Assembly (NCBI RefSeq): GCF_000585495.1 | Contig: NZ_CP007264.1 | Coordinates: 868,001 to 932,000 of the forward strand | Direction: 5' to 3' | Length of the DNA stretch: 64,000 nt | Source of the DNA: Thermococcus nautili | Lineage (GTDB): Archaea; Methanobacteriota_B; Thermococci; Thermococcales; Thermococcaceae | Shown: positions 23,474 to 35,464 of the stretch, piece after piece | How the letters are laid out: every line of letters starts with the position of its first letter | Numbering within the stretch: position 1 is the first letter of the stretch | Notes under the pieces: model-generated | What the model was told of the DNA's origin: nothing | Databases searched by the model: none | The model's input: the letters and a program-made list of their open reading frames with translations, nothing else | Made by a program: the position numbers and the translations under genes

Positions 23474-23526
23474 TGGTCTTCCACATAAGGAAATATTTAA
23501 ATAATATTTCCTCCCATAAAAGACCA
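23474..23526 (+). promoter_or_regulatory. Nested palindrome over the ATPase-gene promoter
   Basis: An inner inverted repeat, GGAAATATT and AATATTTCC (23489-23497 and 23503-23511), is centred on a TATA-like ATTTAAATA. An outer pair, TGGTCTT (23474-23480) and AAGACCA (23520-23526), brackets it and runs into the ATG. This symmetry over the core promoter suggests repressor control, possibly autoregulation. Confidence 0.55.
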
Positions 23527-24779
23527 TGATTGACAAAGATTTAACCCTCCAGTACCTGGCGGACTTCCAAGAGAAAAAGCTCCCAGAAACCGTCGAGCGC
23601 GAATTGAGAGTTCCCCTAAAGAGCGGGCAAATCATAACCCTAATCGGGCCGCGGCGGAGCGGAAAAACCTTCTACTTCTACCAGCTCATTAAAGAACTCC
23701 CGCGCGAGGACGTTCTCTACATAGACTTCGAGCATCCCATCTTCGAGGGATTTGAGTCAAGGGACATCATGGACGTCCTTAAACTCCATCGTGAGGCCTT
23801 TGGCGAGCCGGCTTACGTCTTTCTCGACGAGGTTCAGGCTGTCAAGGGCTGGGAGCGAATGGTCAGGTATCTCCACGACGAGGGGTATTCAGTTTTCGTA
23901 ACCGGCTCCTCCTCAAAGCTCCTCTCCATGGAGATAGCCTCAAGGCTGAGGGGAAGAACGCTGACCTACACGATGCTCCCCTTCTCGTTTCGGGAGTTCC
24001 TGAGGGCGAGGGAATACCGTGTGAGACGACCCCTGAGCTCAAAGCGGGAAGCTGAGCTTAAGGCCCTGCTCAGAGAGTACCTCGAGTGGGGGGGCTTTCC
24101 AAGGGTCGTCCTTGAGGATAACGAGATGATTAGGGAGAAGCTCCTCGAAGAGTACCTCGACATGGTTCTCTACAAGGACGTCGTGGAGCGCTACGGCGTT
24201 AGAAACCTCCACGTGATGAAGCTCCTCCTCCGCTCGCTGATGCGTTCCTTCGCCAAGGAGTTCAGCGTTCACGCCTTCTACAATGCCCTCAAGTCCCAGG
24301 GGATAAAGGTCAGCAAGGGAGTCCTCTACGAGTACCTCAGCTATCTTGAGGATTCAATGAGCGTCTTCCTGGTGAAGAAGTTCAGCTACTCCCTAAAAAC
24401 CTCGGAGCTTTCGATTCCAAAGGTTTACCCAGTTGACGCCGGCTTTCCACGGCTTTTCTCATTTACACCCGACACGGGCAGGCTCATGGAGCTCGCGGTG
24501 TTCCTTGAGCTGAAGAGACGGGAAGTGGAGGTTTACCACTACAAGAACCGGGGGGAGGTTGACTTCGTGGTAGCTAAGAGAGGCCAGCCCGTCGAGCTGA
24601 TTCAGGTCACGTACGCGCTGGACTCTGGAGACGTAAGGCCGAGGGAAGTCGAGGCCCTGAAGTCCGCCGGCAGAAAGCTGGGCGTGGAGAGCCTAACGGT
24701 GATAACGTGGGACTACAGAGACGAGAAAGATGGAATCCGCTTCGTTCCGCTCTGGTGCTTCCTCACGGAAAAGCTTTAA
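23526..24779 (+). CDS. AAA ATPase with DUF4143/nuclease-like C-terminus
   Basis: A 417-residue protein. Walker A is GPRRSGKTF (about residues 39-47), Walker B is YVFLDEVQ and sensor 1 is VFVTGSSS. The middle is winged-helix-like. The C-terminal DUF4143 part has ELKRREVEVYHYKNRGEVDFVV and VELIQVTY, a PD-(D/E)XK-like arrangement. This is a multicopy, patchily distributed archaeal and bacterial family with no settled function. The gene sits between two copies of a 37-bp repeat, and its last codons lie inside copy 2, which suggests recent insertion. Confidence 0.85.
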   Translation: MIDKDLTLQYLADFQEKKLPETVERELRVPLKSGQIITLIGPRRSGKTFYFYQLIKELPREDVLYIDFEHPIFEGFESRDIMDVLKLHREAFGEPAYVFLDEVQAVKGWERMVRYLHDEGYSVFVTGSSSKLLSMEIASRLRGRTLTYTMLPFSFREFLRAREYRVRRPLSSKREAELKALLREYLEWGGFPRVVLEDNEMIREKLLEEYLDMVLYKDVVERYGVRNLHVMKLLLRSLMRSFAKEFSVHAFYNALKSQGIKVSKGVLYEYLSYLEDSMSVFLVKKFSYSLKTSELSIPKVYPVDAGFPRLFSFTPDTGRLMELAVFLELKRREVEVYHYKNRGEVDFVVAKRGQPVELIQVTYALDSGDVRPREVEALKSAGRKLGVESLTVITWDYRDEKDGIRFVPLWCFLTEKL

Positions 24780-34517: not shown

Positions 34518-35354
34518 ATGGACGAGGTTATAGAGGAGTTCGAGACCTACCTCGACCTCGAGGGCAAGAGCCCGAACACAATTAGGATGTACTCCTACTA
34601 CGTCAGGCGATACCTCGAATGGGGCGGGGCTTTGAACGCGCGCTCCGCCCTCCGCTTCCTGGCGAGGTTAAGGAGGGAGGGCTACTCCAACAGGAGCTTA
34701 AACCTCGTCGTCCAGGCTTTGAGGGCCTACTTCCGCTTCGAGGGCCACGATGAGGAAGCGGAGAAGCTGAAGCCACCGAAGGTGCCGAGGAGCCTGCCGA
34801 AAGCTTTGACGCGCGAAGAGGTCAAGAGGCTCCTCTCCGTCATCCCACCGACGCGAAAGAGGGACAGGCTGATAGTTCTGTTACTCTACGGGGCGGGTCT
34901 TCGTGTCAGCGAGCTGGTCAACCTGAAGAAGAGTGAAGTCGACTTGGAGAGGGGCATAATAGTCGTCCGCGGTGGAAAAGGGGCCAAGGACAGGGTCGTG
35001 CCGATTCCGGAGTTCCTGGTGGAGGAAATCCGTTCCTACCTCGAAACGCGCTCCGATTCGAGCGAATATTTACTCGTCGAGGAGCGGAGGAAGAACAAGG
35101 ACAGACTCTCGACGAAGACCGTCTGGTACCTACTGAAGAAGTACGGGAAAAGGGCAGGCGTTGAAGTCACGCCCCACAGGCTCCGCCACAGCTTCGCAAC
35201 GCACATGCTCGAGCGGGGAGTGGATATAAGGGCCATTCAAGAACTTCTCGGCCACTCCAACCTCTCGACGACCCAGATTTACACGAAGGTCACCGTCGAG
35301 CACCTCAGGAAAGCCCAGGAAAAGGCGAGGCTCATGGAGGGGCTGGTGGAGTGA
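34518..35354 (+). CDS. xerA: Tyrosine recombinase XerA
   Basis: A 278-residue integrase-family recombinase that resolves chromosome dimers at dif. The N-terminal SAM-like domain ([19 protein letters not shown]) is followed by the catalytic core: Arg in [12 protein letters not shown], Lys in [38 protein letters not shown] with the nucleophilic Tyr. Length and motifs match archaeal XerA. No dif-like site is evident beside the gene, but two GGTAC palindromes follow its stop. Confidence 0.95.
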
Positions 35355-35355
35355 G

Positions 35356-35410
35356 CGGTACACCATGCAGTACCGTCCCTTTTTAAAGACTGGTACGGCA
35401 TACCGTACCA
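35356..35410. promoter_or_regulatory. Paired GGTAC-N8-GTACC palindromes around a TATA-like core
   Basis: Site 1, GGTACACCATGCAGTACC (35357-35374), and site 2, GGTACGGCATACCGTACC (35392-35409), have identical GGTAC-N8-GTACC architecture, 35 bp centre to centre. Between them TTTTTAAAG (35380-35388) reads as a TATA element on both strands. Each palindrome covers the transcript start expected for one direction. They lie in the 110-bp gap between convergent xerA and pfkC. Confidence 0.6.
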
Positions 35411-35464
35411 ACCAAAAACCAAGCCTAACTGTCCCGGAGAGAACGAGAAAACATTAAGAAGACG

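What the first reader, a model, noticed from the sequence alone, without database searches (positions are those of the whole stretch)
35356..35410. Twin GGTAC-N8-GTACC operators around a two-way TATA between convergent genes
Two 18-bp palindromes of identical architecture lie 35 bp apart around a symmetric TTTTTAAAG. Predicted starts fall on each palindrome, one per strand. The location is the 3' junction of xerA and pfkC, where no promoter is expected. Transcripts would run antisense into both genes, or the sites might bind a recombinase or nucleoid protein.
Basis: partly seen in the sequence, partly recalled or inferred. Interest (0 to 1): 0.57.

Follow-up and report, generated by a model that had tools for sequence, protein, structure and literature searches.

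The report
Orphan operator of lost ATPase gene
Two matching DNA palindromes between two genes of a Thermococcus look like the left-over control switch of a neighbouring ATPase gene (a candidate virus-defence gene) that this species has lost, and sister genes of that ATPase carry their own different switches of similar layout, which suggests that these ATPases control themselves.

Summary
In detail: GGTAC-N8-GTACC lies at 35357-35374 and 35392-35409 (0.01 expected), with one other exact copy in the chromosome. The genome is Thermococcus nautili 30-1 by length.

Of 54 genus genomes examined (this one included), 16 have an ATPase gene (AAA_14 + DUF4143) on the pfkC strand; in 16 of 16 the same twin flanks its TATA-like box just before the ATG. 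T. nautili and 7 others have the twin without the gene, 4 have part of it, and one has a 5' coding remnant at the junction. So this is an orphan operator-promoter.

Paralogous ATPases have different dyads or twins before their ATG, repeated at 33-35 bp where the repeat is significant. This fits autoregulation in a family that PADLOC lists as candidate defence PDC-S01; binding is inferred.

Across four gene-less species (this one included) the twin varies at 7 of 53 columns, fourfold sites at 152 of 310, so it may still be selected.

The parts
35357..35374 (.). palindrome 1 (xerA-proximal); equivalent by position of the start-codon-proximal operator of the ATPase gene in gene-bearing relatives
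35375..35391 (.). 17-bp spacer with TATA-like TTTTTAAAG; equivalent of the ATPase promoter core, which in relatives serves the minus strand; direction and activity of any residual promoter here not settled
35392..35409 (.). palindrome 2 (pfkC-proximal); equivalent by position of the distal operator
35355..35356 (.). 2-bp junction between the xerA stop and palindrome 1: the place where relatives have a ~1.3-kb ATPase gene
   Evidence: compare (G010, gene present)
23526..24779 (+). intact paralogue of the lost gene: AAA_14 + DUF4143 ATPase, PADLOC PDC-S01; comparison case, not part of the orphan site
23475..23525 (+). that paralogue's own, different operator-like dyad: GGTCTT..AGGAAATATTTAAATAATATTTCCT..AAGACC, ending at its ATG

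Best explanation
The element is the operator-promoter of an AAA_14/DUF4143 (PDC-S01-like) ATPase gene that stood between xerA and pfkC and is missing from this genome. Shown by comparison: in gene-bearing congeners the two palindromes flank a TATA-like box and end at the predicted ATG of the ATPase; in T. nautili the palindrome abuts xerA and the gene is absent. Inferred: the ATPase (or a factor specific to it) binds both palindromes, shuts out TBP/TFB and represses its own gene, so expression would rise when the protein is drawn away. Also inferred: the orphan copy has been kept by selection for a while after the loss, through an unidentified binder or as a terminator/insulator between convergent genes.
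For: Twin before the gene in 16 of 16 gene-bearing loci. Gene-less loci: 8 of 38 a full twin (at most 1 arm mismatch per palindrome), 4 of 38 part of one; in those read, the palindrome begins within about 10 bp of the xerA stop. G044 holds a gene-X-like 5' coding remnant (KRHIRLFYEREL) and G007 a 3' fragment: decay in place happens. Paralogue families have their own dyads: 55 of 75 upstreams exceed the 95th percentile of 48 control genes; 49 of 75 have at most 1 of 100 shuffles as good. Lag between copies: 35 in the 15 of 16 significant gene-X upstreams, 34 in 8 of 10 of one family, 33-34 in 6 of 11 of another; 0 of 48 controls pass. A pattern drawn from one other family's twin hit 9 of 61 genomes and, place by place, only before genes of that family. 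Constraint in G000, G031, G050, G053: arms 1/20, spacer 2/17, core 4/16 variable columns v 152/310 fourfold columns (one-sided p 5e-5, 0.002, 0.05); twin 7/53 v flank 13 variable and 13 gapped of 55 (p 0.03 without gapped columns).
Against: No binding or expression data. A separate regulator could bind the sites. The dyad test is uneven: gene X 16/16, L065 13/13, L066 3/3, L064 6/8, L288 6/10, but L254 2/11, L067 1/6, L265 1/3 and singletons 1/5; the best centre is not always near -26 (L066 at -35.5, L067 at -40.5). Clusters L065, L067 and L265 show no significant direct repeat. Orthologues are not independent. Twin-only genomes do not form one clade on the pfkC tree (7 changes, at least 6 forced), so some losses may be recent, which would weaken the constraint argument. 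The structure hint is weak (mean pLDDT 70.5; TMq 0.17-0.34 in the listing).
Confidence: 0.82

Rival explanations
1. The twin acts as a bidirectional terminator or insulator between convergent genes: hairpins end the xerA and pfkC transcripts.
For: Terminator-like hit 35355-35376 with a T-run on the + strand; both strands fold better than shuffles (z -2.4 and -3.5); constraint in gene-less species.
Against: In 16 of 16 gene carriers the twin is the start region of a gene. 17 of the 26 genomes without a twin have xerA on the same stretch as pfkC, though not always directly adjacent. The arm changes in gene-less loci are, by eye, not compensated on the other arm.
Confidence: 0.15
2. A transcription factor unrelated to the ATPase binds the twin and controls whatever stands there.
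For: The twin persists without the gene.
Against: Only this site pair in the genome; paralogue families have different operator sequences, which would need a different factor for each.
Confidence: 0.2
3. The site is a XerA/integrase recombination or attachment site at which the ATPase gene cassette inserts.
For: Beside xerA; the gene is gained and lost here and its tree disagrees with the pfkC tree; G010 and G020 have a third palindrome, and in G010 the sequence beyond it matches that beyond palindrome 2 of gene-less G053, as if a cassette had entered an empty site.
Against: dif in Thermococcales has 11-bp arms and a 6-bp spacer. In G009, G017, G020, G029 and G051 the twin stands before the ATPase with no xerA in the stretch taken (G051's is cut by a contig end). 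Homologous recombination in the flanks would suffice. Target-site duplications were not looked for systematically.
Confidence: 0.05
4. The twin is a neutral relic, simply not yet decayed.
For: Partial decay in G004, G005, G024 and G032; losses look repeated.
Against: Conservation well above fourfold sites in four gene-less species that share the junction and nearly the same spacer.
Confidence: 0.35

Closest known systems
PDC-S01, candidate single-gene phage defence (ATPase fused to a PD-(D/E)XK-like domain; PMC12988326, passages read)
   Same: Gene X of G010 and the window paralogue match PADLOC PDC-S01 models (best E 1.7e-97 and 1.2e-105).
   Different: The passages read mention no operators or regulation; here the promoter layout and an orphan operator are described.
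RptR, repressor of a bacterial defence island (PMC12255303, abstract and outline read)
   Same: A defence-locus promoter controlled through short repeated sites with a palindromic core.
   Different: RptR is a separate small regulator in enteropathogenic Escherichia coli acting on three direct repeats; here the proposed binder is the ATPase itself, in an archaeon, with two palindromes around a TATA-like box.
Archaeal autoregulators of the Lrp family (recalled; PMC2995911 seen only as a search listing)
   Same: Repression by occupying sites around TATA and start (recalled).
   Different: Those are small helix-turn-helix proteins, not AAA ATPases (recalled).
Xer/dif of Thermococcales (PMC2958812, passages read)
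   Same: Inverted repeats in a genome with xerA.
   Different: Arm and spacer lengths and association differ.

Membership tests
PDC-S01 / AAA_14-DUF4143 (gene X and the window paralogue) | AAA_14 (PF13173) followed by DUF4143 (PF13635) | tested here: met
   21 of 21 members of alignment A1 match both; gene X of G010 E 7.9e-33 and 7.7e-23
PDC-S01 / AAA_14-DUF4143 (gene X and the window paralogue) | PADLOC PDC-S01 profile match | tested here: met
   2 of 2 proteins scanned
PDC-S01 / AAA_14-DUF4143 (gene X and the window paralogue) | anti-virus activity | not testable with these tools
operator of the gene-X ATPase (orphan copy) | GGTAC-N8-GTACC twin, 35-bp period, TATA-like box between | tested here: met
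operator of the gene-X ATPase (orphan copy) | ATPase gene directly downstream | tested here: not met
   absent at the locus; best relative in the genome 48% identical, elsewhere: hence 'orphan'
operator of the gene-X ATPase (orphan copy) | bound by the ATPase | not testable with these tools
   inferred from the pairing of protein family and operator type
XerA dif site | 11-bp arms, 6-bp spacer | tested here: not met
   shared arms of 5 bp (7 bp in palindrome 2) around an 8-bp (4-bp) core; definition
intrinsic terminator | hairpin then T-run | tested here: inconclusive
   one pattern hit on the + strand; relevance in this archaeon unknown

The most novel reading that the evidence does not exclude
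PDC-S01 ATPases, among the most common candidate defence genes of prokaryotes, are sequence-specific DNA-binding autoregulators, each subfamily with its private twin operator around its own TATA box; after a gene is lost the operator is retained under selection, as a landing or control site to which the gene cassette can later return (as G010 suggests).
Probability: 0.35. Interest if true: 0.75.

Novelty: new variant of a known kind. Interest (0 to 1): 0.5.

Why it matters
PDC-S01 was reported as the fourth most common defence system across prokaryotes, with validation pending for most such candidates (passages of PMC12988326). Private operators would give a handle on how such genes are controlled: an autorepressed ATPase-nuclease whose repression could be lifted by an invader is a testable model. 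Orphan operators would also mark where such genes have been lost.

Tried and rejected
Rfam: no family at gathering score in the window. sigma-70 scan: not meant for an archaeon, no hit. Genome-wide regulon: rejected, three exact sites and no excess with mismatches. Scan of the species-genome collection for the twin with 15-19-bp spacers: 85 stretches, 80 listed, one titled Thermococcus (L230); the rest, mostly bacterial by title, were not examined, and that tool may leave out near relatives of the window. Solved structures by profile: three RecA chains only (best 9.6e-9, no stretch passing on its own). NCBIfam: 0 of 21. Foldseek on a moderate model: ORC/Cdc6, RuvB and Avs4 chains among the listed hits at low TM, used only as a hint. 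Viral contigs: 6 relatives at 28-31% identity, three used for the fold. Literature: DUF4143 with Thermococc 0 papers; DUF4143 1 paper, listing only; COG1373 with archaea 5 papers, listing only; PDC-S01 3 papers, one read in passages; operator/autoregulation terms nothing on point in the listings. An antisense ORF at 35130-35411 was not taken as a gene: the ATG inside palindrome 1 is not present in G031 (by eye).

Rows dropped: 7 of 61 genus genomes had no usable pfkC hit (G023, G036, G049 no match; G033, G042, G052, G054 xerA side only, and G054 holds part of a gene X at a contig end). The palindrome count looked only near the pfkC stop or the xerA end inside the stretches taken; whole genomes were searched by the fixed patterns. 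G051 was left out of the pfkC tree (short). Promoter comparison: 73 of the 147 matches, mostly the best scoring, plus 4 weaker matches of the own genome (its ninth left out) gave 77 loci, of which 75 had a usable start; 16 of the 75 are gene X itself. G002's row is a chance place elsewhere; its real pair has an 18-bp spacer. The pattern was drawn from the family it then found; one of that family's ten members (L299) was not found at 3 mismatches.

Full report
OBSERVATION. Two GGTAC-N8-GTACC palindromes stand at 35357-35374 and 35392-35409, 35 bp start to start, around GTCCCTTTTTAAAGACT. Two exact matches in 64 kb compare with 0.01 expected. The chromosome has one further, unpaired site. The window is positions 868001-932000 of a 1,976,356-base contig, the length published for the chromosome of Thermococcus nautili 30-1 (PMC3968343, passages).

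RELATIVES. The junction was sought in 61 genus genomes, the window's own included; stretches around pfkC were taken from 54 of them. In 16 of 54 there is an ATPase gene (gene X) on the pfkC strand, and the twin precedes it in 16 of 16, with at most 2 arm mismatches per palindrome. In 11 of these 16, xerA lies on the same stretch, convergent with gene X. In 38 of 54 there is no complete gene X: 8 have a full twin (G000, G002, G031, G039, G040, G050, G053, G058), 4 part of one (G004, G005, G024, G032), and 26 none by that scan. Of the 26, G007 keeps a 3' piece of the gene, G044 a 5' piece reading KRHIRLFYEREL, and G014 and G046 a different palindrome in the same place. In the family, the 53-base pattern with up to 3 mismatches hit 24 of 94 genomes, all in the window's genus; the row for G002 is a chance place, its true pair having an 18-bp spacer.

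THE GENE. Gene X of G010 is 429 residues, AAA_14 plus DUF4143, and matches PADLOC's candidate defence PDC-S01. In T. nautili the best relative is 48% identical and lies in this window at 23526-24779. In G010 the palindrome is directly followed by the predicted ATG of gene X on the minus strand. In T. nautili the equivalent palindrome is followed after 2 bp by the xerA stop. The gene's tree disagrees with the pfkC tree in places (G017 with G029; G041 near G011), so it probably also moves between species. G010 and G020 carry a third palindrome; in G010 the sequence beyond it matches that beyond palindrome 2 of gene-less G053, which I read as a gene with its own twin returning to a gene-less site.

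PARALOGUE OPERATORS. I compared the regions before the start of gene X and of paralogues (77 loci; 75 usable; 16 of them gene X). By eye, eight protein clusters of three or more members show cluster-specific inverted repeats around a TATA-like box, for example TTGTGTATT-N3-AATACACAA twice, TGGTAAAGT..TTTACCA twice, or one large dyad (clusters L064 and L065). By test, a dyad centred 18-48 bp before ATG scored above the 95th percentile of 48 window control genes in 55 of 75, and had at most 1 of 100 shuffles as good in 49 of 75: gene X 16/16, L065 13/13, L066 3/3, L064 6/8, L288 6/10, L254 2/11, L067 1/6, L265 1/3, singletons 1/5. Start codons were picked by rule, and some in cluster L254 are probably off. 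The controls include the window paralogue itself. Copies repeat at a significant lag of 35 (gene X, 15 of 16), 34 (L288 cluster, 8 of 10), 33-34 (L254 cluster, 6 of 11), 33 (L064, 2 of 8) and 34 (L066, 1 of 3); clusters L065, L067 and L265 show none, and 0 of 48 controls pass. A pattern drawn from the L288 cluster hit 9 of 61 genomes, only before genes of that cluster. Thus sequence differs by family while spacing is much alike, the pattern expected if each ATPase, or a factor specific to it, reads its own promoter. Binding by the ATPase is inference. An AlphaFold model of the window paralogue (mean pLDDT 70.5, 4 sequences) shows an ATPase part, a helical stretch with helices 228-240, 248-257 and 264-276 that I read as a possible winged helix, and a C-terminal alpha/beta part; listed folds include ORC/Cdc6 and RuvB at low TM.

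IS THE ORPHAN STILL USED? Across G000, G031, G050 and G053, arms vary at 1 of 20 columns, spacer 2 of 17, cores 4 of 16, against 152 of 310 fourfold columns of xerA and pfkC (one-sided p 5e-5, 0.002, 0.05). The 55-column flank to pfkC has 13 variable and 13 gapped columns (p 0.03 ignoring gapped ones, 1e-4 counting them). The four share the junction and nearly the same spacer, unlike the gene-bearing twins listed, suggesting one older loss; but the tree does not unite them (G010, G020 and G007 fall among them), so recent separate losses are not excluded. Other gene-less genomes show decay. I hold selection on the orphan as somewhat more likely than not.

VERDICT. As a promoter left without its gene the element is ordinary, but it leads to a general and testable point about control of PDC-S01 ATPases, for which my limited searches found no account (listings only, apart from passages of one paper and the abstract of another).

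Noticed in passing
window 23475-24779: Intact PDC-S01-like ATPase with its own, different dyad ending at its ATG.
   Followed up: yes
L103 2785-2880 (G014) and L107 2750-2845 (G046): At the same xerA-pfkC junction a different palindrome (in G046 TGGTCTAA..TTAGACCA) stands beside a TATA-like box: perhaps the orphan operator of another family, or an altered specificity.
   Followed up: partly
L105 (G058) and L119 (G024): Another open reading frame (MKKKVLAILVVGLVFGF in G024) lies between the twin or half twin and pfkC: the junction seems to be a place where genes come and go.
   Followed up: no
L044 1558-1575 and L058 909-926: Third palindrome in G010 and G020, 34 bp beyond the second.
   Followed up: partly
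L151-L229: GGTAC-N8-GTACC pairs in many bacterial contigs, many with 54 bp total length and some repeated; not examined.
   Followed up: no
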